Assembly (NCBI GenBank): GCA_016196035.1
Contig: JACPYM010000129.1
Coordinates: forward strand, 1 to 42,556
Source: Acidobacteriota bacterium
Lineage (GTDB): Bacteria; Acidobacteriota; Blastocatellia; RBC074
Reading direction: 5' to 3'
Length of the DNA stretch: 42,556 nucleotides
The notes below the pieces were generated by a model. It was not told the origin of the DNA. It made no database searches and saw only the letters and a list, made by a program, of their open reading frames with translations. The stretch's first letter is position 1; the number at the start of each line of letters is the position of its first letter. Of this stretch, positions 1 to 28,972 are shown piece after piece. A program made the translations under genes and the position numbers.

Positions 1-102
1 CTCCTCCTGAGCGCCTGCGCGTTGGCGCTTTTTCGGCTTCGGAATCGGCGTGATGAACTTGGCCTTGCGTCGGTCACTGACTATCCGCTGCGTAGGCTGG
101 GT
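1..102 (-). pseudogene. Start-less N-terminal piece of a second restriction (res) subunit, runs off the window
   Basis: Read on the minus strand from position 102, 34 codons stay open to the window edge. They include QPTQRI, then RR, then ITPIPKPK, which align with residues 29-50 of the complete res gene in this window (QPTQRI, RR, ITPIPKPK in the same order and spacing). The sequences differ at several positions, so this is a divergent paralogue and not an exact duplicate. About the first 28 residues are missing: the homology begins exactly where mod homology ends, in a different reading frame. No start codon of its own is seen. The rest lies outside the window, so whether a downstream start rescues it cannot be told. 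This could be a true recombination scar or an assembly join. Confidence 0.7.
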
Positions 103-1465
103 CGGTGGTCATAAGAATGCATCGTTCCAAGACGGTGAGAGCTGTCTGGACAACATAAGTTTTTGGGCCACCAAACTGGTTTTGACCAAGCGTGTCATTC
201 CAAACGTCTGTGAGTTCGTAAACTGGATAATCGTCAAGATAGCGAATATAGCCCAAGTTGCTGGTTGAACTTGCCTCTGCCCGGTTCGCCTTAATGAGCC
301 GGTCAAATCCCTGCTCATTTGTTTTCCAGCGCACGCTCAGCGACGGCTTTATCACGCGACCTTCAAAATTCACACCAAACCAAGAAGCTGCGCCTTCCCC
401 TTTGTCACGCCCAACGCTCTGACTCGTGAGATTATCGCGGAAGTAAATCTTGGCATCACTTGGCAGTGAATCTGGATCGTCAATCTCATCTTTTGTGAGT
501 GGCCGACGAGAGAGATCGGCTAGTTGGACGCTCTTGTAGCCAGTTCCACCTTTCTGCCCCGGCGCTTTCTTGAGTAGAAACTTTCGGTACTTCACCGATT
601 CTTTTCGCTTGGCGTACCAAAGCAAATAATCAAAAGTCGGCCCAAGAAAATCGCCTGTCGAGCCGGATGTTTTCACAAAGACGATGCAACTGATGAACGA
701 GTCAATGCCAAAAACCTCATCCATCACCGCCCGCACCCGATGCACATTCTCATCCCCAATCTACACAAAGATCGAACCGCCCTCCGTCAGCAGATCGCGC
801 GCCACCGTCAACCGGTCGCGTAGATAGGTCAGATACGAATGAATGCCGTCGCGCCACGTATCCCGAAAGGCTTTGACCTGCTCCGGCTCGCGCGTGATGT
901 GGTCGGTGTGGCCGTCTTTGACATCGCGGCTGGTGGTTGACCACTGGAAATTGGAGTTGAACTTGATGCCGTAGGGCGGATCGAGATAGATGCATTGCAC
1001 CTTGCCGCGCAGCCCTTCGCGTTCGGCCAGGCTCGCCATCACCTGCAAACTGTCGCCCAGAATCATCCGGTTCGCCCAATGCGCGTCGTGCTGATAAAAC
1101 TCCGTCTTGGCGTCATCGTCAGGCAAGCCATTGAAATCGGCGAACAGATCGAACTGAAGCTCGGCGGCCTTGTGCTCGGCCTTTGACCGGCGCAGCAGAT
1201 CGTCAATCAACACCTTGGGATGAACCTTTTCCTGGATGTAAAGCGGCGGCGCCTGCACGACCAAATCCGACCAATCCTGCTCATCCTTGCCGCGCCAAAC
1301 CAACTGCGGATCAAGATCGCGGTCGCGCCGTTCGTAGGCTACGCGGACGGGATGCTTGTCTTCCTGCCGCAGCACGGATTGGAATTCGGCGGTCGGGATG
1401 TTCTTGCGCGAAGCATCATCGTGCGTGAGGGTTTCGACGGATTTCTTGGTTTGGTTCTTTGCCAT
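74..1465 (-). pseudogene. Type III-like DNA methyltransferase (mod), broken by an amber codon and 3' truncation
   Basis: An N6-adenine methyltransferase of the beta class, normally partner of the neighbouring res subunit. The start at 1465 gives MAKNQTKKSVETLTHDD; the catalytic motif IV, DPPY, is at residues 162-165. At 761-763 the frame meets TAG just after GGSIFV, and continues in the same frame with IGDENVHRVRAVMDEVFG. Family members usually read GSIFVQIGDEN here, so a single CAG to TAG change explains the stop. The second half ends at MTTDP, exactly before the expected DPxxGSGTTA SAM-binding motif I, and then runs into a res-like sequence and stops at 74. With the amber and without motif I the protein should be inactive. 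No Shine-Dalgarno sequence is seen before 1465, where an inverted-repeat element separates it from res. Confidence 0.85.
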
Positions 1466-1609: not shown

Positions 1610-4600
1610 TTACGCGACGATGGTCTCAATCATCCGGTTGAACTCGGCTTCGATCTTCGCCGCAAAATCCTCTTCCATCTGAAACACATCGGTGAATTCG
1701 GCAAACGCCCAGCGGCCATAGCTGCCCAGATTGTTCACGCCCGGCACCCAATACACATCCATCGTCTCTTTCTTCACGACGGCATCCTGACGGCGGTAGC
1801 CTTTGATCTCGACGATCAAATTGAGCGGGTCTTCGTGTCCATCGTCTACCAGCACGATGAAGTCGGGAATGTATTTGCGGTTTTCCGAGCCGAACCGGTA
1901 CGGCACTTCCAACCCCAGATTGTGATTCTTGACGTAGGCTCGCACTTTCGGATGCGCTTCGACGACGCGGCAAAACTCGGCTTCCCAACTGCTGTCGAGG
2001 ATGACCCAATTCAAATGGCAGCGCCGCGCGTCCGTCAGCCAGCGTTCCGTCTTTGAGGTGTTGAATTTGACGTGCAGCGTCGAGCCGGTCGGGTTGTAAG
2101 GATCGAGGACGGCTTTGATCGGGCGGCGGCCTTCTTCGGCGCGCACGATGGCGGCGGTGATGCGTTCGCAAGCCATATCGGATAGCTCCTGATACAGCAA
2201 CTGCGCCGGATAAGTGCCGCCTTTACAGACCAGACTACTGTCCAACCATTGCTTGGTGATTTTCCTGAGTTGGAAGAACAGATTGGGATTGAAGCCTTCG
2301 CCCGAGTCACGCCACTTGGTGTTAAGCAACCGAGACGCCAGGTGTGTCAGCAACGTGGAATGCCGCATGTCGCCCAGATGTTTCAGGTTCAAATCCACGG
2401 CCTCGCCGATGATACCCTCATTGCGCGTGATCGAAGGGCCGACCAGATCAGGCGTTAATTCCAGCGCGGAATCAGCGTTGAAAGTGGCGGTCAACCGCTC
2501 TTCCGGCAACTCGACGCGATAACCCGCCACACGCGGAAAACGAATTTCCAACGCGTCGCGGTCAGGGCGCAAGGCTTTGACTTGAATGGTTTCGCGTGGC
2601 TTTTGCGGCGGGGCGACAACGGGCTTGGCATTGAAATCAAAAGGAATGCCCAGCACATCGGCATATTCGACATTGAACAAACCGTCCTCATTCAGTTCGT
2701 AAGACTGACGGCGCAACGCGCGGCCAATCACCTGTTCGCACAGCAACTGCGTGCCGAACGCGCGCACGCCCAAGACGTGCGTGACGGTGTTGGCATCCCA
2801 GCCTTCGGTCAGCATCGAGACCGAGACGACGCAGCGGATGGATTCGCCCAATTGACCGGGCTTGCCGACGGTGTTCATCACTTCGCGCAGCAGTTGCTGG
2901 TCGGTCAGGTTGTCGGCCTGACGGCGGTCGCCGGTGCGTTCGATGATCTCGCGGCGAAAGCGTTCAATCTCCGGCTCAGCCATTTTGCGGAAGCTGTCAT
3001 CCAGCGCCTCGCCGGATTCGAGTTGTTCGCTGTCAATCAGCAGCGTGCGCGGGCGCGGATAGGCGTTGCCGTGCTCATCGAAATTGCGAAACAGCGCGAG
3101 CCGCCCGGCCACTGGCATTGACGATCCGTCTTCATTGACTTGGTCAAAACCAGAGATGTAATCGTAAACCAGCTTCGAGGTCGAAGTGTTGTTGCAGACG
3201 ACGATGAAACAGGGCGGCACGCGAATGCCCGCCGCCCGCCATAACTCGTAGGTCTTTTCGTAATGGCCGTAAAGGGCTTCGAGCGCGGTTTGCAATTCAA
3301 CCGGCAGGCTGAGCGGGTCGAGTTCGCCCGCCTTGCTCTTGCCTTTCTTCGGCATCTTTTTGCTGATGTGTTCCCACAGATTGCGGAACTTGGGCGCGTC
3401 TTCGCCGGGAATGTTGTCGGCCACGGGTACGCGCGGCAATTTGACGATGCCGCATTCGATGGCGTCCATCAGCGAAAAGTCGCTCATCGTCCACGGGAAC
3501 AACGTGCCTTCGCGGTAGCCGGAACCGCGCAGGAAAAACGGCGTGGCCGATAGATCAAGCACGCGCGCCACGCCCAGCTTCCGCTTGACCGTTTCGAGAC
3601 CGGAAATCCAGAGCCGCGCGGCTTCGTTGTTCTGCTGGGCCTCTCGCTTGTCATCGCCGGTCAAGGCTTCTTCGTCAGCGCGGGGCGGTCGCTCACGGTA
3701 ACAATGATGCGCTTCGTCGTTGAGCACCAGAATGTTTTTCAGCCCCATCAAATCGGGCATCACCCGTTGCAACATCTGGCCTTCGGTTTCGAGCGTGTTC
3801 AAGGCCGCGCCGCGTCCTTGCAACAAAGAGCGGTTGCCCTTTGTCAGCTCAAGCCGTTCGCGCAATTTGAAGGCGTGATAATTGGTGATGACGAGCTTGG
3901 CGCGCTTGGCGTCTTCGAGCAGATCGCTGGGCACGAGTTCGCGGTCGGCGTAATAGCTGTCAGGGTCGCTGGGCTGCAATACGCGCAACCGGTCTTTGAT
4001 GGTCAGCCCCGGCGCGACGACCAGAAAGCCGCGCGTAAACCTGTTGCTGCCGGGGTGCCGCACGGCATTGATTGTTTGCCAAGCAATCAGCATCGCCATC
4101 ACCGTGGTTTTGCCTGCGCCGGTCGCCAGTTTCAACGCCAGCCGCGACAGTTCAGGGTTCGCATCGTGGTTGGCGTTGGCGAGATGATCGAGAAACTTCT
4201 TGCCGCGCGGGCCAAGCGTGGGGGCGACTTCGGTCAGCCAGATGGCGGTTTCGACGGCTTCGACCTGACAAAAGAACGGGCGCACGCCGCTAAACGGATG
4301 ATGCCGCCAGTGTTGCAACAAGCGGGCGGTTTCAGGCGTGACCTGCCAGTCGGCGGGATTGGGCAAGGCGCGCCATTGGTTAATGTAATGCCGCATCTCA
4401 TTGATGATCGGCACCGGATCATATTTTTGATTTTCCGTCGAAATCCCGGTGTCGTCGCTAAAGCGCAAATCAGCTTGTTGCGCGGCGCTCTTGCGCTGTT
4501 TGGGTTTCGGAATCGGCGTGATGTACTTTGACTCGCGACGCTGTTCGAGGATGCGCTGAGTTGGTTGGCCTAGTGCATCAAGCTCCCAATGTCGAGCAGG

Positions 4601-4651
4601 GTAGGCATAAGGCGAGTTGAGCACCGGCTGTTCAAAGAATTGATTCCGCAT
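1610..4651 (-). CDS. res: Type III-like restriction subunit: DEAD/DEAH helicase with C-terminal nuclease
   Basis: This 1,013-residue protein should be the ATP-dependent translocase and endonuclease of a restriction-modification pair with mod. Seen in the sequence: Walker A ATGAGKTT at residues 176-183, DEAH at 312-315, an LSATPF motif III, and a motif VI of the form QVIGRALRR. Near the C-terminus a PD-(D/E)xK-like site has PDF at 929 and ExK at 948-950. The N-terminus (MRNQFFEQPVLNSPY) resembles proteins I recall as the BPTD_3080 family. I chose ATG 4651 because the longer frame to 4720 would overlap the EVE gene and adds unrelated residues. The reading frame is intact. Its methyltransferase partner is broken, so an active Res would need another Mod, or DNA recognition may be lost. 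Confidence 0.88.
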   Translation of the reverse strand: MRNQFFEQPVLNSPYAYPARHWELDALGQPTQRILEQRRESKYITPIPKPKQRKSAAQQADLRFSDDTGISTENQKYDPVPIINEMRHYINQWRALPNPADWQVTPETARLLQHWRHHPFSGVRPFFCQVEAVETAIWLTEVAPTLGPRGKKFLDHLANANHDANPELSRLALKLATGAGKTTVMAMLIAWQTINAVRHPGSNRFTRGFLVVAPGLTIKDRLRVLQPSDPDSYYADRELVPSDLLEDAKRAKLVITNYHAFKLRERLELTKGNRSLLQGRGAALNTLETEGQMLQRVMPDLMGLKNILVLNDEAHHCYRERPPRADEEALTGDDKREAQQNNEAARLWISGLETVKRKLGVARVLDLSATPFFLRGSGYREGTLFPWTMSDFSLMDAIECGIVKLPRVPVADNIPGEDAPKFRNLWEHISKKMPKKGKSKAGELDPLSLPVELQTALEALYGHYEKTYELWRAAGIRVPPCFIVVCNNTSTSKLVYDYISGFDQVNEDGSSMPVAGRLALFRNFDEHGNAYPRPRTLLIDSEQLESGEALDDSFRKMAEPEIERFRREIIERTGDRRQADNLTDQQLLREVMNTVGKPGQLGESIRCVVSVSMLTEGWDANTVTHVLGVRAFGTQLLCEQVIGRALRRQSYELNEDGLFNVEYADVLGIPFDFNAKPVVAPPQKPRETIQVKALRPDRDALEIRFPRVAGYRVELPEERLTATFNADSALELTPDLVGPSITRNEGIIGEAVDLNLKHLGDMRHSTLLTHLASRLLNTKWRDSGEGFNPNLFFQLRKITKQWLDSSLVCKGGTYPAQLLYQELSDMACERITAAIVRAEEGRRPIKAVLDPYNPTGSTLHVKFNTSKTERWLTDARRCHLNWVILDSSWEAEFCRVVEAHPKVRAYVKNHNLGLEVPYRFGSENRKYIPDFIVLVDDGHEDPLNLIVEIKGYRRQDAVVKKETMDVYWVPGVNNLGSYGRWAFAEFTDVFQMEEDFAAKIEAEFNRMIETIVA

Positions 4652-4686
4652 TGCTTTCAACCGTCTTCCGCAGCCCGCCCGGCAGT

Positions 4687-5097
4687 TCAGAACTTGAGCA
4701 GGTCTTGCAGCAATTCCCAATACTCTTTGCTGATGGGCACGACCGAAAGGCGCGGCAGCCGCACCAAATCGAATTCGCTGAAGGCTTCATTGGCTTTGAT
4801 TTCGGCCAGGGTCAGCGGCTGGGCTAAGCGGCGTTTGGGTTTGAGGTTGACGACCAGCAAATGTTCGTCATTGGCAGTGGGGTCTGGGTAAGCGTCCTTG
4901 ATGACTTCGGCCAGCCCGACAATCGCCTTCTCGTTGCCGGTGTGGTAGATCAAAATCTCGTCACCCAGCTTCACCGCGCGCAAATTCTTGAGCGCCTGGT
5001 TGCTGCTGACGCCGTCCCAAATGCACTTTTTATCCCGCTCAAGATCATCGTAGGAATACGCTTCTGGCTCCGTCTTAAACAACCAACGATTAGGCAT
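4687..5097 (-). CDS. EVE domain protein
   Basis: A 136-residue single-domain protein starting MPNRWLFKTEPEAYSYDDL, with WDGVSSNQA, a GDEILIYHTGNEKAIVGLAEV stretch and a C-terminal LPRLSVVPIS. These are hallmarks of the EVE fold, a PUA-like domain that binds modified bases in DNA or RNA. The start at 5097 has a good ribosome binding site (AGGAG, 10 bases upstream); the longer frame to 5259 is low-complexity and lacks homology. It lies 35 bases upstream of res on the same strand, so co-transcription is likely. EVE proteins are known near modification-dependent restriction systems but are also common alone, and its other neighbours (YbaK, ABC-F) are translation-related, so its role is open. Confidence 0.85.
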   Translation of the reverse strand: MPNRWLFKTEPEAYSYDDLERDKKCIWDGVSSNQALKNLRAVKLGDEILIYHTGNEKAIVGLAEVIKDAYPDPTANDEHLLVVNLKPKRRLAQPLTLAEIKANEAFSEFDLVRLPRLSVVPISKEYWELLQDLLKF

Positions 5098-17077: not shown

Positions 17078-17755
17078 ATGAAGATCAAAAGCTTATCGCT
17101 GCTTGCCAGCGCCCTGTTGCTTTGCGCCGCAACTGCGTTGGCACAAACTCCAAGCCCCGCCCCGGTGTTGCCGAAACCGCCAAAATTGAAAAAAGAAAAA
17201 GGCTTCAAAGTGCTCTTCGATGGCAAAACGATGAACGGCTGGAAAGTCGCCGAGGAGAATCAAGCCTCTTGGACAGTGCAAGAAGGCACATTGCAGGCGC
17301 ACGGCAACCGCTCTCATTTGTACTATGTCGGCGACCCGCAACCCTTCGTCAACTTCGAACTCAAAATTGACGCGTTGACGATGCCCAAATCAAACAGCGG
17401 CATCTATTTTCACACCGAATATCAAACGACCGGCTGGCCCAAGAAGGGCTTTGAAGTGCAGGTCAATCAAACCCACGGCGATTGGAAAAAAACCGGCAGC
17501 CTGTATGACGTGGTCAACGTGAAAGAAAACCTGGCCAAGGATAATGAGTGGTATAGCTATGACATCATCGTCAAAGGCAAACACGTGACGATCAAGGTCA
17601 ATGGTCAAGTCGCCGTGGATTGGGAACAACCGGTGGATCAACAGCCTGGCAAAGATTTCGCGCGCATTCTCGACAAAGGCACCATCGCCCTGCAAGCGCA
17701 CGACCCGGGCAGCACCGCGCGGTTTGCCAACATTCAAATCAAACGGCTGGATTGA
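17078..17755 (+). CDS. Secreted DUF1080 (3-keto-disaccharide hydrolase-like) protein
   Basis: A 225-residue protein with a signal peptide ([23 protein letters not shown]) and one concanavalin-like jelly-roll domain. [15 protein letters not shown] is the classical DUF1080 opening; [11 protein letters not shown] and [11 protein letters not shown] follow, and the domain ends with [15 protein letters not shown]. Some family members are 3-keto-glucoside hydrolases; others have no known activity. The ATG at 17078 follows AAGGAG by 10 bases; the open frame before it crosses the upstream terminator and is not coding. Confidence 0.9.
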
Positions 17756-18413
17756 TTCGGCCCTGCTTTTTCAGCACAAGTGCATGGTCTGGCGCATCGG
17801 TCAACTTGGCTGATACGCCGGACTTTGAACCGGCTCGGCCACAGCTAACATCCGCCGCGCTGCCAGCTTCAAGTATTCCTGCTAAAAAAAACCTTCAGGC
17901 CAAGAAATGTTTTACCGAACCAAACCATCATGGTTGATCGGTGAAACTTGAACCCAATTTCGAGTGCTCTCCTGATCCACTGCGCTTTCATTGTTGGGCG
18001 CTCTGCCAGGACGCTTCACGGTTACGCCAGCACGACGCGTCTGTTTTACGACCTCAGCCACAAGGAGCGCAGCGCATTGGCATTTGGCAAAAGTCAGGTC
18101 TTAGTTCCGCTCAAGCAACATCGCACGAGTCACGTCCCCAGCCAGGAGCAGCGTCCTCAGCCAATATTTTCCTCCTTGCACAATGCTTATCTTACAGTCC
18201 ATTGCCAAGCTTAAAACTGCGGGTTAAGATGCGCGCCGCTTTGATCGTAATCACCGCTGGCAAGCGGCGCTTTCAAAGCAGCCTTCACTTTCTGACCAGT
18301 CGCTAATTTTCAATTCAATCCGATTCCTGCGCGAGGGGTGTAAGCGCGCTTCGCAGGTGTTTTGTGCCGCGCCCGCCCTCGCCCAAACACAGCGTCTCAC
18401 AAGGAGGCCTCGC
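17756..18413. other. Intergenic region of 658 bases before the molybdenum hydroxylase genes
   Basis: Open frames here (for example 17941-18306) carry no recognisable motif or ribosome binding site. A possible promoter is at 18202-18230. Otherwise I see nothing that I can name. Confidence 0.5.
18202..18230 (+). promoter_or_regulatory. Possible promoter of the molybdenum hydroxylase operon
   Basis: TTGCCA (18202-18207) and TAAGAT (18225-18230) are 17 bases apart. The -35 matches five of six positions, the -10 only four, and the leader would be about 180 bases, so this is tentative. Confidence 0.3.
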
Positions 18414-18884
18414 GTGAAGATCAATCTTTCCATCAACGGGCAAGCCCACGCAGCGGATGTCGAACCGCGCTTGCTGCTCGTCCATCTCATCCGTGATGTC
18501 GCCGGCTTGACCGGCACTCACATCGGTTGCGAAACATCCATCTGCGGCGCCTGCACCGTTCACCTGAATGGCGCGGCAGTCAAATCCTGCTGTGTACTTG
18601 CTGTTCAAGCCGCTGGCGCTGAAGTCACGACTATCGAAGGTCTGGCCAGCAATGGCGCATTGCACGCGGTGCAAGAAGGCTTTTGGGAATGTCACGGCTT
18701 GCAATGCGGCTACTGCACGCCGGGCATGATCATGACCACGTGCGCACTGCTCACGGCCAATCCCAATCCCAGCGAAAGCGAGATTCGGCACGGGCTGGAA
18801 GGTAATCTGTGCCGCTGTACTGGCTACCAGAACATCGTCAAATCCGTGCAGTACGCGGCGGACAAAATGCAGGCCCAGGCTTAA
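18414..18884 (+). CDS. Molybdenum hydroxylase small subunit, 2x[2Fe-2S] (CoxS-like)
   Basis: A 156-residue iron-sulfur subunit that passes electrons from the molybdenum site to FAD. The plant-type cluster ligands are C39, C44, C47 and C59; the second cluster uses C98, C101, C133 and C135 (CGYCTPG and CRCTGY motifs). The length matches CoxS and related subunits. Translation starts at GTG 18414, placed by AAGGAGG six bases upstream; the frame continues upstream to 18357 without homology. No signal peptide, so the complex is cytoplasmic. The large subunit gene starts 30 bases downstream. Confidence 0.95.
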
Positions 18885-18914
18885 CAAAAGCCCGAACGAA
18901 AGGAGAGCACCGCA

Positions 18915-21233
<2,319 letters not shown>

Positions 21234-21260
21234 CCGCTCGGCAAAAAGGAGGCAGTTCAA

Positions 21261-22865
21261 ATGGCAAAACAACCGCTCACGAAAACCGCTGCAACCCCGC
21301 CTGCGCCGCCTGCGCTCTTGATGCTGCGCCATCATGGTGGGCTGCGCGGTCTTGAATCCACCGCCGGTTCACAACTTTTCGAAGGGCGTTTCGGACGTAT
21401 GTTCCGCACATTACCGGCGGCGGAGTTCCCCGATACCGCGCTGGAAGAATTGGCGAAGCTCGGTCACATGACAGCGGAGGCCGAGGCTACCCCGACGCCG
21501 GAAACCGAAGCGGACGCCGAAGAAAACACGGGCATCGCGGCGGGCTTCACCTATCTAGGTCAATTCATAGATCACGACCTGACCTTCGATCCGATGAGCA
21601 GTTTGCAAAAGCAAAACGACCCGGATGAGTTGACCGATTTCCGCAGCCCGCGCTTCGACCTGGATTCGCTTTACGGACGCGGCCCCGATGACCAGCCCTA
21701 TCTTTACGAAGACGATGGGCTGCGCTTCAAACTGGGACGCGCACTGACCGGCAGCGCCCTTGACGCCAAGGTACGCGACCTGCCGCGCCACGCCGCGAGC
21801 ACGCCCGGCAGCCGCGCGCGCGCCCTGATCGGCGATCCGCGCAACGATGAAAACGTTATCGTGTCGCAATTGCACGCGACGATGCTGCGCTTTCACAACC
21901 GGATGGCGGCTTTTCTGACTACGGGCGGACAGCCGCCCAGCTTTGCCGAGGTGCAACGCCAGGTGCGCTGGCATTATCAATGGGTCGTGCTCAACGACTT
22001 CCTGCCCACCATCGTCGGCAAAGACACGGTCGAAGCCGTGCTGCCGCACCTGAAAAAGAAGGAAAGCATTTATGAGCACAAACCCAACCTGCGTTTCTTT
22101 CACTGGCGCAGCCAGCCGTACATGCCGGTGGAATTCGCCGTGGCCGCCTATCGCTTCGGCCATTCGATGATTCGCCCGCAATACCGGCTCAACACCACCA
22201 TTCTGAGCGGCGGCATTGACGGCAAAGGGCGTTTCGCCATCTTCACGCCCGACGACGGCGTGCTGGGCCTCAACGGCTTCCGCGAGTTTCCGGCCAACTG
22301 GGCGATTGATTGGAGCCTCTATTTCGACTTGGGTAACAACGCGCCGAAATTCGGGATTAAGCGCGTGCAGCCCGCCTACAAAATTGACAGTTCGCTGGTC
22401 AATCCGCTCGGCATGTTGCCCGAATCGGTCGCGCGCCAGATTCGCTCACTGGCCGAACGCAATTTGAAACGCGGCGTGCGCATGGGCCTGCCGTCGGGTC
22501 AAAGCGTGGCGCGGCTGATGGACATCGAACCAATCCCCGACGACAAACTGCGCGTCGGCAAAGCCACCGAAGAAGACGGCCCTAACAATCCCAAACTGAC
22601 TGACTTGTCGCCGGCCTTCCGAGACAACGCGCCACTCTGGTATTACGTGCTGGCCGAGGCGCAACAGCAATTCAAAAAAGACAGCACCCCGATACGCCTA
22701 GGCCCGGTGGGCGGACGCATCGTGGCAGAAGTTTTCATCGGCCTACTGCTCGGCGACCAGCATTCCTTCCTGGCGCAATGGCCGAGTTGGAAACCGGAGC
22801 CGTCGTTCATGAACAAAGGCAAGTTCGGCATCGCCGAGTTGGTCAAACAAGCGCTGCTGGCTTGA
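21261..22865 (+). CDS. Animal-type haem peroxidase (peroxidase-cyclooxygenase superfamily)
   Basis: A 534-residue protein of the myeloperoxidase/peroxidasin superfamily. The distal site GQFIDHDLTFDP at 100-111 has D104 (the haem ester position in mammalian enzymes) and distal H105, with Ca2+-binding D106. R194 in IGDPRNDEN fits the catalytic Arg. The proximal ligand is H301 in YRFGHSMIRPQY. No signal peptide is seen, unlike most members. It starts 27 bases after the CoxL-like gene, with AAGGAGG upstream, and ends 45 bases before the FAD subunit gene, so it lies inside the hydroxylase operon. It may use or remove H2O2 made by the molybdenum enzyme, or modify the same substrate; this is inference. 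Confidence 0.92.
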   Translation: MAKQPLTKTAATPPAPPALLMLRHHGGLRGLESTAGSQLFEGRFGRMFRTLPAAEFPDTALEELAKLGHMTAEAEATPTPETEADAEENTGIAAGFTYLGQFIDHDLTFDPMSSLQKQNDPDELTDFRSPRFDLDSLYGRGPDDQPYLYEDDGLRFKLGRALTGSALDAKVRDLPRHAASTPGSRARALIGDPRNDENVIVSQLHATMLRFHNRMAAFLTTGGQPPSFAEVQRQVRWHYQWVVLNDFLPTIVGKDTVEAVLPHLKKKESIYEHKPNLRFFHWRSQPYMPVEFAVAAYRFGHSMIRPQYRLNTTILSGGIDGKGRFAIFTPDDGVLGLNGFREFPANWAIDWSLYFDLGNNAPKFGIKRVQPAYKIDSSLVNPLGMLPESVARQIRSLAERNLKRGVRMGLPSGQSVARLMDIEPIPDDKLRVGKATEEDGPNNPKLTDLSPAFRDNAPLWYYVLAEAQQQFKKDSTPIRLGPVGGRIVAEVFIGLLLGDQHSFLAQWPSWKPEPSFMNKGKFGIAELVKQALLA

Positions 22866-22910
22866 ACCTAAACGGTTCAAGCCGCCGCGTCTAACAACCG
22901 TGGAGACACT

Positions 22911-23774
22911 ATGATTCCCAGCAATTTTGCCTATCACGCGCCGGACACCCTCGAGACAGCGCTGCAACTGCTCGACCAGCACGCCGACGACGTCAAGATT
23001 CTGTCGGGCGGCCACAGTTTGCTGCCGGTACTGAAACTGCGGCTGGCCGCGCCCGCCGTGCTGGTGGACATCGGACGCATTGCGGCGTTGCGTGCAATTA
23101 AGATTGAGAACGGCGTCATCCGCCTCGGCGCCAACGCCACACATGCGGCTATCGCTGCATCCGCCGAAATCAAACAACACTGCCCCCTGCTGGCCGAAAC
23201 CGCCGCGCAAATCGGCGATCCGCAAGTCCGCAATCGTGGCACCATCGGCGGCAGCCTCACGCACGCTGACCCGGCGGCGGATTGGCCCGCCGCGATGCTG
23301 GCGCTCAATGCCGAAATCGTCGTCCGCAGCAGCAGCGGCGAACGCGCGATTCAGGCGGCGGATTTTTTCGTGGACATGCTGACCAGCGCCGTTGAACCCA
23401 ACGAGATCGTGACCGAGATCCGCGTGCCAGTGCCCGCACAACCAAAGGCGGCGGCCTATTTGAAGGTCGCGCAGTCGGCCTCTGGTTTCGCCTTGGTCGG
23501 GGTGGCCGTGCAACTCAAACTCAACAATGGACAATGCGAAGAAATCAGCATCGGCGTCACCGGCCTCGCGCCCAAGGCCTACCGCGCCAAAGCCGTCGAA
23601 GATGCATTGCGCGGCAAAACCCTGGACGCAGCCGCCATCAGAGCGGCAAGCGGCCAAGCCGATGCCGATGCCAGCGATGCGCTGGGCGACATCCATGCTT
23701 CGGCAGATTACCGGCGGCATCTGAGCCGGGTTTACGCACAGCGGGCCATCAATGCCGCCCGGAGCAGAGCCTAG
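22911..23774 (+). CDS. Molybdenum hydroxylase FAD subunit (CoxM-like)
   Basis: A 287-residue flavin subunit. The FAD-binding motifs are ILSGGHSLLP (residues 30-39) and TIGGSLTHADPAADWPA; a CO-dehydrogenase flavoprotein C-terminal domain follows. It has only two cysteines and no extra [4Fe-4S] loop, which argues against the 4-hydroxybenzoyl-CoA reductase type. GGAG lies 7 bases before the ATG. The order small, large, (peroxidase), FAD matches form II S-L-M order with one inserted gene. A terminator-like hairpin follows at 23791. Confidence 0.94.
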   Translation: MIPSNFAYHAPDTLETALQLLDQHADDVKILSGGHSLLPVLKLRLAAPAVLVDIGRIAALRAIKIENGVIRLGANATHAAIAASAEIKQHCPLLAETAAQIGDPQVRNRGTIGGSLTHADPAADWPAAMLALNAEIVVRSSSGERAIQAADFFVDMLTSAVEPNEIVTEIRVPVPAQPKAAAYLKVAQSASGFALVGVAVQLKLNNGQCEEISIGVTGLAPKAYRAKAVEDALRGKTLDAAAIRAASGQADADASDALGDIHASADYRRHLSRVYAQRAINAARSRA

Positions 23775-23790
23775 CGAGTTTTACTTCTGG

Positions 23791-23844
23791 CGTCAGTGAA
23801 TGCACCAGCGCTAAGTTGGCGCCTTCACTGACGGTTACTTTTTC
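23791..23844 (+). terminator. Hairpin and T-run after the FAD subunit gene
   Basis: CGTCAGTGAA (23791-23800) and TTCACTGACG (23824-23833) are perfect complements; a GCGC pair adds an inner stem and ACTTTTTC follows. It probably ends or attenuates the hydroxylase transcript. Confidence 0.6.
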
Positions 23845-23982
23845 GCGCCAACCGCTGCCCGATTGAGCAGGCAAGCTGCTGATTAGCCCCGCCTGTCTGT
23901 TTTGAGTGGGCCATTACCAGCACTCGCCAAACACTCGGCCTGACCGGCCACCACCAAAAACTTTTTCCCGGAGACTGCGCCC

Positions 23983-25056
23983 ATGAAAATTTCCACCTTT
24001 GCCGACAAAACATTTTTGATCGAGAACAACGAGGCCCGCATTCGCCGCGACGACAATCTCGCCCTCACTGCCACCTTCGCGGCGGGTGACCCCTTGCCGC
24101 CCGGCGCGCTGGTAGGCGCGCCCAAAATCATTCCCAAACGGACGGAAGTGCGCGTCACAGAGGTGCGCGTGGATGAGGCACGCACCGTTTTTGTGCGGGC
24201 GCAACCGGTCAACGCAACCCTCAACCTGCCGGTGGGCTGGACGTTGGCGGCCAATTTGGAAGGGCAGTTTTTGAATGAGATCATCGGCTTCGCGCCAGAC
24301 AATTTGGAGTTGCCGCCGCAAGGTGACAACTTCACCGTGACCGACAACAAAGCGCTCATCCGCAATGGGCCGCCCGATTTCACTTCGACTGGTACCAAGC
24401 TCATGCCGGGTGCTTTCGTGCTGGTTGCCCAAGCATCCAAAAACACCGACCCGCTTGGTAAATTCGTCAAACTCAGTGAGGGTTCACTCGTCGCGGGACT
24501 GCCGCAGCCGGGGGCGGAACTCGGCTGGACGGCGGCGGCCAATCTGACGCCCGGTTGGGGCACGGCCTTTTCGTCGCCGAGTTGGCTGGATGAAAAGGGG
24601 CCGAACGCCTGTTGGGAACGCGGTCGCTATCTAGGCCCCAAATTGCTGGTCAACATCGTGGGCGTGGGCAGTGAGATGGAACAAATCACGTTGGACAGTC
24701 TCGAACCCTATTTGCGCTTGATCGAAGCCGCCGCCAAAAAGAATCTGGTCATTGCGGTGGAAAGCGGCTTCCGCACGTTCCCGAGCCAGGTGCGGCTTTT
24801 CCAGGCTTTCAAAGCAGGGCAAGGAAATAAAGCCGCTGAGCCGGGCCGTTCCAATCATCAGCATGGCCAAGCCTTTGATCTGAACACGCGCGGGTTTGAT
24901 GGAAGCCCAGTTTACGACTGGCTGAAAAAGAACGGCCCGCGCCTGAGCTTCATTCGCACGGTCAACAAAGAGCACTGGCATTGGGAATACCGGCCTGAAG
25001 AAGCCGCCGCGCTGGCGGCCAAGGGGAAATTTGCGTTGGCTAGCGTTACTCGCTAA
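23983..25056 (+). CDS. M15-type D,D-peptidase with duplicated N-terminal module
   Basis: A 357-residue protein whose C-terminal part is a VanY/M15-like zinc peptidase. The SxHxxGxAxD motif is S290-N-H292-x-x-G-x-A-x-D299 and the ExWH motif is E330-H-W-H333, giving ligands H292, D299 and H333 and the catalytic E330. The usual target is a D-Ala-D-Ala or other D-amino acid peptide bond. Residues about 8-95 and 108-185 look like two copies of one small domain: each has IENNEARIR or VTDNKALIR, then LPPGALV or LMPGAFV, and ends near GWTLAANL or GWTAAANL. No signal peptide is visible, odd for a cell-wall enzyme. Its place between hydroxylase genes and coxG is unexplained. Confidence 0.85.
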   Translation: MKISTFADKTFLIENNEARIRRDDNLALTATFAAGDPLPPGALVGAPKIIPKRTEVRVTEVRVDEARTVFVRAQPVNATLNLPVGWTLAANLEGQFLNEIIGFAPDNLELPPQGDNFTVTDNKALIRNGPPDFTSTGTKLMPGAFVLVAQASKNTDPLGKFVKLSEGSLVAGLPQPGAELGWTAAANLTPGWGTAFSSPSWLDEKGPNACWERGRYLGPKLLVNIVGVGSEMEQITLDSLEPYLRLIEAAAKKNLVIAVESGFRTFPSQVRLFQAFKAGQGNKAAEPGRSNHQHGQAFDLNTRGFDGSPVYDWLKKNGPRLSFIRTVNKEHWHWEYRPEEAAALAAKGKFALASVTR

Positions 25057-25110
25057 GCTCCGTTCAAATGCGTAGCCGGGCAAGCCGCGCCTGGTTACGC
25101 TTCGTCGCAT

Positions 25111-25140
25111 AGCGGTAAGTTGGGCGCCCACCTTACCGCT
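25111..25140. promoter_or_regulatory. Near-perfect 30-base palindrome before coxG
   Basis: AGCGGTAAG pairs with CTTACCGCT and, after one mismatch, TGGGC pairs with GCCCA. It lies 24 bases before the coxG start and could be an operator, an attenuator or a short terminator after the peptidase gene. Confidence 0.5.
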
Positions 25141-25164
25141 TCCCTTGAGAGTGGAAACCAATCT

Positions 25165-25692
25165 ATGAAGATCGAAGGCTCGCACACGCTCAAAATCCCG
25201 CGCGCGCAATTGTACCGGATGTTGATTGACCCGGTGGTGATTCAACGCTGCGTGCCGGGTTGCGAGGCGCTTGAAGCGCACGAGGATGGAACTTACAAGA
25301 TGACGTTGAAGGCCGGCGTGGGTTCGGTCAAAGGCGTCTTTAACGGCCAAATCAAGCTTGACGAACTGCGTGAGCCTGAGCATTACAAAATGATTGTCGA
25401 GGGCACGGGCAAGGTCGGCTTTGTCAAAGGCGCCGGCCTGCTCGATCTGGTCGAACAAGGCAATGAAACCATCGTCAATTACACTGGCGATGTCAGCATC
25501 GGCGGCAATATCGCCAGCGTGGGCCAGCGTATGGTACAAGCGGCGGCCAAAATGATGGCCGGGCAATTTTTCAAAGCTGTCGAGGCTGAAGCCAACCCTG
25601 ATGAAGCTCCCAAGCCAGGGTTGGTCAAACGTTTGATGAATCGTGTGGCGGGAAGTGCCGAAGATTCCGCGACGCCCCCTGAACAACCGTGA
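25165..25692 (+). CDS. coxG: CoxG/SRPBCC family protein
   Basis: A 175-residue protein of the CO-dehydrogenase subunit G family, a START-like fold. MKIEGSHTLKIPRAQLYRML, then VVIQRCVPGCEALE and YTGDVSIGGNIASVGQRMV are typical. In Oligotropha CoxG is implicated in anchoring or maturing the enzyme at the membrane; in actinobacteria a homologue extracts quinone to take electrons from CO dehydrogenase. It therefore probably serves the upstream molybdenum hydroxylase. ATG 25165 is chosen from homology, with a weak GTGGAA site. The C-terminus ends in a charged, proline-rich tail. Confidence 0.9.
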   Translation: MKIEGSHTLKIPRAQLYRMLIDPVVIQRCVPGCEALEAHEDGTYKMTLKAGVGSVKGVFNGQIKLDELREPEHYKMIVEGTGKVGFVKGAGLLDLVEQGNETIVNYTGDVSIGGNIASVGQRMVQAAAKMMAGQFFKAVEAEANPDEAPKPGLVKRLMNRVAGSAEDSATPPEQP

Positions 25693-25699
25693 GGTTTTG

Positions 25700-27448
25700 A
25701 TGTCCAATCTGCTAAAGCTTTGTTTCCTGCTGTTGTTCGCCTCCCCCACGGCATTCGCCCAGCTCAACGCCAAACTGCTCGGTCAACTTAACCCTTACCC
25801 CGGTATACACAATCGTTACGGCGATATTTGGGGCGAAGGTCAGTATGCCTATCTCTGCTCGTATCAAGGCAGCAACGTCACGATCATTGACATCAGCGAT
25901 CCGCGCGCGCCCAAAGTGGCGGGCGTTTTTGAACCGCCGGGCGGCCCCTCCTTGCGCGATGCCGTAGTCCTGAATGGCATCGGCTATTTTTCCAGCGATG
26001 ACGGCAAGGGGCTTTACATCGTTGACGTGCGCGACCCCAAAAACCTGCGGCAACTCAGCAACATCACCGCCGCCCAGAGCGGGCATAATAACGTCCACGA
26101 GATTTCGGTCAGTGAAGGCTTTCTTTATGAAGCCGATTCGCGCACGCCGCGCGTCAAAGTAATTGATGTCAGCGATCCGGCGCGCCCGGTTTTCAAATGG
26201 GACATTGATTGCCAGACCACCGGCGCGGTGCACAGCGCGCTCGCCATCAACGGGCGCTTATATGCTTCCGGCCTGGGCGGCTCGACGGAAATTTATGACG
26301 TGCGCAATACGGCAACCACTGCGCCGCGCCGTCTGGGCGTGGTCGCTTCGGGGCTGGCTTCGCACAGCAGTTGGCCCAGCAATGACGGGCGCGTATGGGC
26401 CACGTGCAGCGAACGCGACAACGGCGACACGCGCTTGTATGACCTCACCGATCCCGCCACGCCGCGCCTGCTTTCGACCATCACCGCCGCGTCTATCGGC
26501 ATTGACGCCTTCACGCCGCACAACCCCGTCATCGTCGGCAACCTGCTGTTTGTCGCGTGGTATCAAGCGGGCACCCAAGTCTTCGACATCACCGATCCCA
26601 CGCGGCCCGTGCGCGTCGGCGAATATGACTGCTATCCCGGCCCGCTTTGCCCAAACAATTTTTGCTACGCGGGCAATTGGGGCGTCTATCCGTTTCTGGG
26701 CCTGGATCGCGTGCTGTTGAGCGATCTGGATGGCGGTTTATTCATCGTAGACTTCAGCGCGGCGGGCACCGGGGTGAAAACGGTTTCCGCCGCCAGTTTC
26801 AGCCCTGCGGCGATCACGCCAAAAGCCATCGTAGCGGCCTTTGGCAGCAATTTGGCGGGCGATACCCGCGCGGCGTTGACCCAACCCTTGCCCACCGATT
26901 TGGCGGGCGTGCGCGTGAGCGTGCTGGATTATGCGGGCGTCGAACGCGCAGCCCCGCTGTTTTTCGTTTCCCCGGCCCAGATCAATTATCAAATCCCTGC
27001 CGACAGCAAGCCCGGCCCGGCGTTGGTCAAAGTCAGCAGCAGCGATGGCACGGTGCGCCAAGGGGCGACGACGATTTTGCCCACCGCGCCGGCCATGTTC
27101 ACCACCAACCAAGCGGGCAACGGCCCCGCTGTCGCGCTGGATGCCCTGACTTATAGGCCCGCGCCCTTTGCGGCGACGCGCGCCAATGGCGAGCCGAATA
27201 TCATCGCGCTGTTCGGCACCGGCTTGGGCAATGACGCCACGGATGCTGCCCTTGATGTCGGCAGCAATGTCAGCGCCACACTCAACGCCGTGCCCGTTAC
27301 CGTGCTGTATGCGGGCGCGACGCCCGGCCTGACAGGCTCGAATCAAATCAACATCGTTTTACCCACGGGATTGACGGCTGGTGAATACCGGCTGACGATC
27401 TGGCGCAATGGCATCGGCAGTAACGAAGTCACCCTTGCCATTCGCTGA
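25700..27448 (+). CDS. Secreted LVIVD beta-propeller protein with TIGR03437-like C-terminal domain
   Basis: A 582-residue exported protein. A signal peptide (MSNLLKLCFLLLFASPTAFAQ) precedes about six LVIVD-type blades, recognisable by VTIIDISDPRAP, LYIVDVRDP, VKVIDVSDPARP, LYDLTDPATP and VFDITDPTRP. From about residue 365 the sequence (VSAASFSPAAITPKAIVAAF, later FFVSPAQINYQIP and IALFGTGLG) matches my memory of TIGR03437, a domain largely limited to Acidobacteria. The start follows the coxG stop codon by 7 bases, so the two are likely co-transcribed. Function unknown; a cell-surface or periplasmic binding role is possible. Confidence 0.85.
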   Translation: MSNLLKLCFLLLFASPTAFAQLNAKLLGQLNPYPGIHNRYGDIWGEGQYAYLCSYQGSNVTIIDISDPRAPKVAGVFEPPGGPSLRDAVVLNGIGYFSSDDGKGLYIVDVRDPKNLRQLSNITAAQSGHNNVHEISVSEGFLYEADSRTPRVKVIDVSDPARPVFKWDIDCQTTGAVHSALAINGRLYASGLGGSTEIYDVRNTATTAPRRLGVVASGLASHSSWPSNDGRVWATCSERDNGDTRLYDLTDPATPRLLSTITAASIGIDAFTPHNPVIVGNLLFVAWYQAGTQVFDITDPTRPVRVGEYDCYPGPLCPNNFCYAGNWGVYPFLGLDRVLLSDLDGGLFIVDFSAAGTGVKTVSAASFSPAAITPKAIVAAFGSNLAGDTRAALTQPLPTDLAGVRVSVLDYAGVERAAPLFFVSPAQINYQIPADSKPGPALVKVSSSDGTVRQGATTILPTAPAMFTTNQAGNGPAVALDALTYRPAPFAATRANGEPNIIALFGTGLGNDATDAALDVGSNVSATLNAVPVTVLYAGATPGLTGSNQINIVLPTGLTAGEYRLTIWRNGIGSNEVTLAIR

Positions 27449-27460
27449 TGAAACCAAAAC

Positions 27461-28972
27461 ATGAACGCTGCACGCATCACCCTCGACAACCTCGAAAAAT
27501 ACGGCGAGTACGTCTCGACCTGGTTTGAAGGCCACAGCTTTACCAATGTCGAGCGCTATGCCGCCGCCTGCCGTTTGGCTGAAGTGTTGCGTGCGCACGG
27601 CGCGCAACCGGGCGACCGCATCGTCGTGATGATGCTCAATTCGCCCGATGTCGCCGCAGCTTTCACCGCCATCTGGGCCATCGGCGCGGTCATCGTGCCG
27701 GTCACGCCGATGTGGACGGCGCGCGAAGTGCGCTATGTCTTGCAGGATTCCGGCGCGCGCTTGGTCATCACTTCGCCCGAATTGGCAGCGCGGTTGAAAG
27801 AAGCGTCTGCTGACTTGCCCGGCTGCAACACAGTGCTGGTCATCGGCGCGACTGCGGTTGCAGGAGTCACCGACATCACCGCCGCCTACGACCAGGCCCA
27901 GCCGTTTGAACAAGTGGTGGATTGCGCGCCGGACGAGTTGGCGCTGTTGCTTTACACTTCAGGCACCACGGGCAACCCCAAAGGCGTGATGCTCAGCCAC
28001 GACAATCTGATTTTCATCGCCGATGCGGTGTATGCCAACAGCAGCGGCCTGGGCCAGATTCGCGGCATGCAGGTGTTGCCGCTCAGTCACATTTACGGCG
28101 TGCTGATGATGAATCTGGGCGCACGGATGGGGAATGCCAGTTACATTCTGAAACACTTCGACGCGGGCCAGGTGCTGCAACTCATCGAGAGCTTCCGCGT
28201 GCAACGCCTGGCCGTGGTGCCGACGATGTTGACGCTGCTCATCAATCACCTCGACCGCGCGAAATACGATTACGCCTCGCTCGAAGCCGTCGGCTCCGGC
28301 GGCGCGCCTTTGTCTGAAGCGACGCGACAGGAATTCGCGCGCCTCTTCAATTGCCGCGTCACGCAGGGCTACGGTTTGTCCGAAAGCTCCGGCGCGCTGA
28401 CCGGCTTTCATCACGACGCTGAATACCGCGTCGGTTCGGTCGGGCCGGCCTTGCCCGGCGTCGAACTGTGCGTGATGGATTTCAACAACCAAGTTTTGCC
28501 GCCCGGCGAGATTGGCGAACTCTGCTCGCGCGGACGGCACATCATGCAAGGCTACTTCAACAACCCACAGGCCACTGCTGACTCGATCATTGAAGGTTGG
28601 TTGCACACCGGTGACGTTGGTTGGATGGACGCGGACGGTTACGTTTACATCACCGACCGCAAAAAGGATTTGATCATCAAAGGCGGCGAGAACATTTCGC
28701 CGCGCGAAATCGAGGAAGGCATCTACGCGCACCCGGCCATCGCCGAAGCCGCCGTCGTCGGCGTGCCCGATGAACTTTATGGCGAAAACCTGCTGGCGGC
28801 AGTCGTGCTGAAACCCGGCCAGGCGCTTTCAGAGGAAGAGTTGAAGCAGCACCTCAGCGGTTATGTGACCAAGTTCAAAGTACCGGGGCGGGTTGTCTTT
28901 CTGGGTGCTTTGCCGAAAGGCTCGACCGGCAAGATTCTGAAGCGGGCGATTAAAGAACAGTTCGCAGGCTGA
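27461..28972 (+). CDS. Acyl-CoA synthetase (AMP-binding, class I adenylate-forming)
   Basis: A 503-residue cytoplasmic ligase that would activate a carboxylic acid to its acyl-CoA through an acyl-AMP. Seen: the P-loop LLYTSGTTGNPKGVMLSH, QGYGLSESSG (A5), GWLHTGDVG, the A8 hinge YITDRKKDLIIKGGENI, and C-terminal PKGSTGKILKR with the catalytic Lys. Substrate class cannot be read from the sequence. It starts 12 bases after the LVIVD gene and ends at a 29-bp inverted repeat. An acid produced by the molybdenum hydroxylase could be its substrate; that is inference only. Confidence 0.9.
   Translation: MNAARITLDNLEKYGEYVSTWFEGHSFTNVERYAAACRLAEVLRAHGAQPGDRIVVMMLNSPDVAAAFTAIWAIGAVIVPVTPMWTAREVRYVLQDSGARLVITSPELAARLKEASADLPGCNTVLVIGATAVAGVTDITAAYDQAQPFEQVVDCAPDELALLLYTSGTTGNPKGVMLSHDNLIFIADAVYANSSGLGQIRGMQVLPLSHIYGVLMMNLGARMGNASYILKHFDAGQVLQLIESFRVQRLAVVPTMLTLLINHLDRAKYDYASLEAVGSGGAPLSEATRQEFARLFNCRVTQGYGLSESSGALTGFHHDAEYRVGSVGPALPGVELCVMDFNNQVLPPGEIGELCSRGRHIMQGYFNNPQATADSIIEGWLHTGDVGWMDADGYVYITDRKKDLIIKGGENISPREIEEGIYAHPAIAEAAVVGVPDELYGENLLAAVVLKPGQALSEEELKQHLSGYVTKFKVPGRVVFLGALPKGSTGKILKRAIKEQFAG

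What the first reader, a model, noticed from the sequence alone, without database searches (positions are those of the whole stretch)
18414..28972. Form II molybdenum hydroxylase operon containing an animal-type haem peroxidase
The S and L genes are followed by a haem peroxidase gene and then M, in the same direction with gaps of 27 and 45 bases and good ribosome binding sites. Standard clusters are S-L-M in variable order without a peroxidase. The L subunit has AYRGAGR, so it is not a CO oxidiser. Molybdenum hydroxylases of this family can give H2O2 when O2 is the acceptor; a cytoplasmic peroxidase (no signal peptide seen) in the same operon could use that H2O2 to oxidise the product or protect the cell. 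This may be an undescribed two-enzyme oxidation system.
Basis: partly seen in the sequence, partly recalled or inferred. Interest (0 to 1): 0.7.

Follow-up and report, generated by a model that had tools for sequence, protein, structure and literature searches.

The report
Peroxidase gene inside molybdenum-hydroxylase operon
A soil-type bacterium carries a peroxidase gene, related to those of animal immune cells, between the genes of a three-part molybdenum enzyme; the arrangement is real and recurs in two relatives but is missing from others, so it is a patchy add-on and not a standard part of the enzyme.

Summary
The window has S (18414-18884), L (18915-21233), a PF03098 haem peroxidase (21261-22865) and M (22911-23774) on one strand, gaps 30, 27 and 45 bases, no promoter-like match between L and M, and a terminator-like hairpin after M. 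The peroxidase keeps the superfamily signatures, has no visible signal peptide and is under purifying selection. L carries AYRGAGR (form II); its best family models are glyceraldehyde dehydrogenase, just under cut-off.

The same S-L-peroxidase-M order occurs in a relative of another genus (G009) and on contig L011, labelled Gammaproteobacteria but compositionally a mis-binned Acidobacteriota-like contig. It is absent at that junction in 5 of the 7 family genomes that have L. On the L tree, carriers and non-carriers alternate. Unrelated genes or ORFs occupy the same junction in four other genomes. Elsewhere this peroxidase is rarely near such genes: 2 of 83 other places; in 396 sampled phylum genomes (G009 not among them) only the window has both on one contig.

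Best reading: an accessory cytosolic peroxidase inserted in a conserved form II operon, plausibly using or removing H2O2. A dedicated H2O2-coupled system is possible but not shown. New variant of a known kind; modest interest.

The parts
18414..18884 (+). S subunit, [2Fe-2S] protein of a xanthine-dehydrogenase-family hydroxylase (GTG start behind AAGGAGG)
   Evidence: Pfam Fer2_2 4e-33; NCBIfam glyceraldDH_gamma 251 bits, cut-off 290; ribosome site
18915..21233 (+). L subunit, molybdopterin protein, 772 aa, AYRGAGR at 19998-20018, GVGEAG at residue 728
   Evidence: Pfam MoCoBD_1/2; glyceraldDH_alpha 769 bits, cut-off 790; CO_dehy_Mo_lg 728, cut-off 991; motifs
21261..22865 (+). haem peroxidase of the peroxidase-cyclooxygenase superfamily, 534 aa, no signal peptide seen; distal GQFIDHD 21558-21578, RNDEN 21840-21854, proximal AYRFGHS 22146-22166, Asn401 at 22461-22463
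   Evidence: PF03098 9.2e-18; signatures invariant in 17 rows; AlphaFold2 model pLDDT 81.5, best PDB match a cyanobacterial peroxidase, then myelo- and lactoperoxidases
22911..23774 (+). M subunit, FAD-binding
   Evidence: Pfam FAD_binding_5 4.4e-52, CO_deh_flav_C 6.6e-20; glyceraldDH_beta 310 bits, cut-off 350
23792..23843 (+). terminator-like hairpin followed by a T-rich tail; likely end of the S-L-peroxidase-M unit
   Evidence: RNA fold of 23775-23850, -28.1 kcal/mol, z -3.4, 0 of 200 shuffles as good; not listed by the simple terminator scan, whose total is near chance
25120..25692 (+). CoxG (SRPBCC) gene, downstream of the hairpin and of a VanY/M15 gene; also lies near M in some relatives
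   Evidence: Pfam COXG 6.3e-25; a CoxG match within about 300 bases of M in 8 of 19 relatives' loci

Best explanation
A form II (AYRGAGR) molybdenum hydroxylase operon S-L-M, probably an aldehyde oxidoreductase and not a CO dehydrogenase, has acquired a cytosolic haem peroxidase gene at its L-M junction in some members of one Acidobacteriota-like family. The gene is read from the same mRNA as S, L and M and works in the same compartment. Its active site is complete (distal His between two Asp, catalytic Arg, ester-forming Glu, proximal His with Asn), so it should bind haem covalently and reduce H2O2 while oxidising a small donor. Most likely it is an accessory enzyme, co-expressed with an enzyme that can leak electrons to O2, that lowers or spends peroxide. 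It is not an obligate subunit or partner. Shown: order, spacing, intact signatures, purifying selection, patchy recurrence. Inferred: co-transcription, haem binding, H2O2 as substrate, benefit of co-expression.
For: Order and spacing; the one promoter-like match in 17700-25200 is upstream of S, none lies between L and M, though the match is not above chance (1 found, 2.2 expected); hairpin after M. Same order in G009 and L011. The three operon peroxidases form one clade (98/98) with dN/dS 0.10-0.18, like L and M (0.09-0.17). Signature residues invariant in 17 rows. Loci without peroxidase or other insert have L-M gaps of -4 to 87 bases, and G004, the outermost family member on the L tree, has M48-S-L-M without it. 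This makes the peroxidase an addition to a conserved S-L-M core. H2O2 can inhibit a relative: it coordinates molybdenum in Desulfovibrio gigas aldehyde oxidoreductase (PMC3877041, abstract read).
Against: Nothing measured links the two enzymes. Close relatives have the hydroxylase without the peroxidase at the locus (5 of 7 family genomes with L). Two of these, G006 and G008, have a PF03098-type gene elsewhere in the genome; for G001, G004 and G007 the protein search found none. Other genes or ORFs sit at the same junction in G001, G011, G019 and G023, so the position may carry no functional meaning. Co-transcription was not measured. The peroxidase tree disagrees mildly with the L tree (WIN+G009 held as a clade: AU p 0.046), so transfer and not shared descent with L may explain it.
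Confidence: 0.55

Rival explanations
1. Incidental insertion. The L-M junction of this operon tolerates inserted genes, and a mobile peroxidase gene with an unrelated function landed there and is kept for its own sake, borrowing the operon's promoter.
For: 7 of 25 loci (L at 60% identity or more, M visible; plus the window) have more than 500 bases between L and M. Three of the 7 hold the peroxidase; the others hold a GxxExxY/PDDEXK_3 gene, a DUF29 gene, a BNR-repeat protein with a small ORF, and a short lipoprotein-like ORF without a Pfam match. The neighbours scanned beside peroxidase homologues elsewhere are varied (20 ORFs).
Against: The same peroxidase clade sits at the same junction in three lineages that are not sisters on the L tree, in the operon's direction with ribosome sites. 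Repeated unrelated insertions would not be expected to pick one gene three times, although one old insertion with losses would explain it equally.
Confidence: 0.33
2. A dedicated two-enzyme system: the hydroxylase oxidises its substrate with O2 as acceptor, and the peroxidase uses the resulting H2O2 to oxidise the product or a second substrate.
For: Co-directional order in three contigs; no signal peptide seen on the peroxidase; [quoted passage not shown]
Against: Patchy presence; no link in the other homologues (2 of 83 other places) or in the sampled phylum genomes; no sign that this hydroxylase is an oxidase rather than a dehydrogenase.
Confidence: 0.1
3. A fatty-acid dioxygenase-like member of PF03098 and not a peroxidase.
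For: PF03098 includes cyclooxygenases and alpha-dioxygenases (PMC4420034, section 7 part 1 of 2 read).
Against: It keeps GQxxDHD and the Asn partner, from which that paper excepts families 4 (cyclooxygenases) and 7, and has Arg298 three residues before the proximal His, where cyclooxygenases have the catalytic Tyr (recalled).
Confidence: 0.02

Closest known systems
Form II (AYRGAGR) 'CO dehydrogenase' coxSLM operons with coxG, e.g. Kyrpidia spormannii (PMC7248562, passages read)
   Same: S-L-M order, AYRGAGR in L, coxG close by; CO oxidation doubtful for this form
   Different: A haem peroxidase gene between L and M; coxG lies beyond a terminator-like hairpin and a VanY/M15 gene
Archaeal glyceraldehyde oxidoreductase (NCBIfam NF041018-NF041020; Sulfolobus tokodaii GAOR, PMC4726530, passages read; PDB 4zoh)
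   Same: Best NCBIfam match of all three subunits
   Different: All three score under the curated cut-offs (769/790, 251/290, 310/350); among PDB chains 4zoh is only sixth, after CoxL and quinoline oxidoreductase chains
[quoted passage not shown] PMC4420034)
   Same: GQxxDHD, RxxE, proximal His and Asn; a single short domain of about 530 aa
   Different: Encoded inside a molybdenum hydroxylase operon; which of the seven families it belongs to was not tested; the role of family 5 is called completely unknown in that paper

Membership tests
Form II molybdenum hydroxylase (xanthine dehydrogenase family) | AYRGAGR in L in place of the cysteine motif of form I | tested here: met
   nt 19998-20018; also in the 7 other L proteins examined
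Form II molybdenum hydroxylase (xanthine dehydrogenase family) | S, L and M subunits in the order S-L-M | tested here: met
   with one gene between L and M
Form I CO dehydrogenase | Score over NCBIfam TIGR02416 cut-off | tested here: not met
   728 bits, cut-off 991
Glyceraldehyde dehydrogenase (NF041018-NF041020) | Scores over the curated cut-offs | tested here: not met
   769/790, 310/350, 251/290: near but below
Peroxidase-cyclooxygenase superfamily (PF03098) | Pfam match over gathering score | tested here: met
   64.5 bits, cut-off 25; the best stretch covers 129-310 only
Peroxidase-cyclooxygenase superfamily (PF03098) | GQxxDHD, RxxE, proximal His with Asn (PMC4420034) | tested here: met
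   D104 H105 D106 R194 E197 H301 N401 invariant in 17 rows; in 21 rows H105, D106, R194 invariant and D104, E197, H301, N401 at 90% or more
Peroxidase-cyclooxygenase superfamily (PF03098) | Fold of the superfamily | tested here: met
   Foldseek E 2e-15 to 8s6c, then myelo- and lactoperoxidases; TM 0.53 to the model and rmsd 9.9, so a loose fit over the whole chain
Peroxidase-cyclooxygenase superfamily (PF03098) | Covalently bound haem, peroxidase activity | not testable with these tools
   Needs purified protein
Conserved hydroxylase-peroxidase operon | Peroxidase kept at the locus across the lineage | tested here: not met
   2 of 7 family genomes with L, plus contig L011

The most novel reading that the evidence does not exclude
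A switchable H2O2 module: the hydroxylase works alone in most strains, and where the peroxidase cassette is present at the L-M junction the pair forms a cytosolic relay in which the hydroxylase's H2O2 drives a second oxidation. The cassette moves between relatives by exchange at that junction.
Probability: 0.12. Interest if true: 0.6.

Novelty: new variant of a known kind. Interest (0 to 1): 0.3.

Why it matters
Passages read in PMC6794299 and PMC7248562 say that CO is probably not, or not firmly shown to be, the substrate of form II hydroxylases. The role of family 5 (short bacterial PF03098) peroxidases is called completely unknown in PMC4420034. A shared operon gives a handle on both: carriers and their close non-carriers (G009 and G006, L 96.5% identical) make a natural comparison of nearly the same hydroxylase with and without a peroxidase beside it.

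Tried and rejected
Horizontal transfer to Gammaproteobacteria (contig L011) was considered and rejected. Four stretches of that contig have 57-58% GC and a tetranucleotide correlation of 0.90-0.93 with the window and 0.76-0.82 with stretches of three other contigs of its bin, which have 64-69% GC; L places it beside G001. So the bin label is not used as evidence of spread. Only composition and the L gene were compared, not every gene of the contig. The rpoB tree was meant to give a species tree: no branch is starred and G001 is half empty, and it supports only the group G006, G008, G009 (90/99).

Recombination breakpoints in L and M of G009 were sought by sliding identity: none seen, G006 or G008 being closest (or level) in every window.

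Neighbours of homologous peroxidases gave no shared theme (20 neighbour ORFs from 8 loci chosen by me). A wider link was tested two ways. First, tblastn of S, L and M in 87 loci holding a homologue (83 distinct places, four fetched twice; other overlaps between collections cannot be excluded; 41 of the 87 have 3 kb or more on both sides): two hits, L011 and G009. Second, PF03098 in 396 phylum genomes (29 with a match) against L in 396 (80 with a match at E 1e-150; the samples are taken to be the same draw, and G009 is not in them): 11 genomes have both, only the window has them on one contig. One search scored at most two candidates per genome, so a weaker hydroxylase next to a peroxidase could be missed.

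Rows left out: the peroxidase tree used 25 of the 89 ORF matches, which include repeats and fragments; the L tree used 20 rows, though more L relatives were found. One peroxidase row (L002) is cut at the contig start.

Literature: the searches (haem peroxidase with molybdenum hydroxylase and operon; xanthine dehydrogenase family with animal haem peroxidase; a six-term aldehyde oxidase query; haem peroxidase with CO dehydrogenase and Acidobacteria) returned no paper. The library lacks most subscription journals and every term had to be present, so this is weak evidence of novelty.

Full report
What is there. The window lies in genome G000 (9.6 Mb, 139 contigs). Acidobacteriota is inferred from the Soli_cterm domain TIGR03437 in the window and from named Acidobacteria among the closest homologues; the genome itself is unnamed. 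Four genes on + form a tight unit: S 18414-18884, L 18915-21233, peroxidase 21261-22865, M 22911-23774, with the Pfam matches. A hairpin with a T-rich tail follows M (z -3.4; not listed by the simple scan). The only promoter-like match in 17700-25200 is upstream of S and is not above chance. VanY/M15, CoxG, an LVIVD protein and an AMP-ligase follow and are best seen as separate.

The hydroxylase. L has AYRGAGR. All three subunits match glyceraldehyde-dehydrogenase models best but just under their cut-offs, and L is far under the CO-dehydrogenase cut-off. In the PDB the best chains are CoxL proteins, and 4zoh (S. tokodaii) is sixth of the seven listed. I read it as a form II hydroxylase of unknown substrate, an aldehyde being likeliest. 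Passages read in PMC7248562 and PMC6794299 say that CO is not firmly shown, or is not, the physiological substrate of form II.

The peroxidase. Its PF03098 match covers residues 129-310, but the signatures that PMC4420034 gives for the superfamily are all there: GQFIDHD, RNDE, proximal His301 and Asn401 (17 rows, 21 rows). The AlphaFold2 model (21 rows, pLDDT 81.5, pTM 0.84) matches cyanobacterial peroxidase 8s6c (E 2e-15), myeloperoxidase and lactoperoxidase, with TM near 0.5. The first 41 residues are of low confidence, and no strongly hydrophobic stretch is seen in the first 60. It is the only PF03098 match in G000.

Recurrence. Of 11 held genomes of the family, 7 have L at E 1e-100. The order S-L-peroxidase-M is in the window and in G009, and on contig L011. 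In G006, G007 and G008 M follows L after 11, 87 and 11 bases, in G004 after 24, and in G001 (the only other held genome of the genus) after 705 bases holding a GxxExxY gene. G006 and G008 have a peroxidase homologue elsewhere in the genome; in G001, G004 and G007 none was found. Searching the 162 held genomes of the class found 10 with a peroxidase at E 1e-90; only G000 and G009 show it beside L (neighbourhoods of G008 and G068, of G031, G038, G062, G082, G474 and G534, examined; the G534 contig starts about 530 bases before the gene).

Contig L011. Its bin is called Gammaproteobacteria and has a different rpoB (43-52% identical to the family's), but the contig itself has the composition of the window and not of three other contigs of that bin. 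I treat it as mis-binned, so the arrangement is so far seen only in one Acidobacteriota-like group.

History. The three operon peroxidases are one clade (98/98), nested among homologues without the hydroxylase. On the L tree the carriers alternate with non-carriers: L011 with G001, the window with G007, G009 with G006, each fork starred, and three changes are the least. So there was either one gain with about four losses, or repeated gain or exchange at the same junction. The peroxidase tree mildly conflicts with the L tree (AU p 0.046). dN/dS of the peroxidase is 0.10-0.18 among carriers, about that of L and M (0.09-0.17; synonymous sites are near saturation).

The junction itself. Of 25 loci with L at about 60% or more and M visible (the window; L011, L126-L138, L140-L142, L145; and L095-L100), 7 have more than 500 bases between L and M. 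Three hold the peroxidase; G001 holds PDDEXK_3, G019 DUF29, G023 a BNR-repeat protein and a small ORF, G011 a lipoprotein-like ORF without a Pfam match. The S-L junction varies too, up to about 500 bases. This weakens any argument from position alone.

Wider link. Among 83 distinct places with a homologue other than the window, only L011 and G009 have S, L or M near by; 41 of the 87 loci searched had 3 kb on both sides. In 396 sampled genomes of the phylum, 29 have PF03098, 80 have a close L, 11 have both, and only the window has both on one contig. G009 was not in that sample.

Mechanism. Co-expression of a cytosolic peroxidase with an enzyme family that can pass electrons to oxygen makes peroxide removal or use the simplest role. 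H2O2 inhibits at least one relative by binding molybdenum (PMC3877041, abstract). But relatives do without it at this locus, and no measurement links the two. I put accessory co-expression at 0.55, incidental insertion at 0.33 and a dedicated relay at about 0.1.

Noticed in passing
window 74-1465, strand -: A DNA methyltransferase-like gene (beside a restriction-helicase-like ORF at 1610-4720) is interrupted by one in-frame stop at 761-763; reading continues in frame beyond it. Names are by eye.
   Followed up: partly
L011 (contig JAJVHZ010000065.1) 1-10678 and L166-L168: 66-kb contig in a Gammaproteobacteria bin that looks like a mis-binned Acidobacteriota-type contig by GC and tetranucleotides.
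   Followed up: yes
L132 7537-8013, L140 5570-7069, L141 6806-7309, L130 6617-7000: Other genes or ORFs at the same L-M junction of this hydroxylase operon in different genomes; the junction may be an insertion-prone place.
   Followed up: partly
L126 7908-7994: The L-M gap of G007 holds a short inverted-repeat element (by eye), possibly REP-like.
   Followed up: no
window 25643-27448, strand +: LVIVD-repeat protein with a Soli_cterm domain; the listed GTG start overlaps CoxG, and the real start is probably the ATG near 25700 before a signal-like stretch.
   Followed up: no
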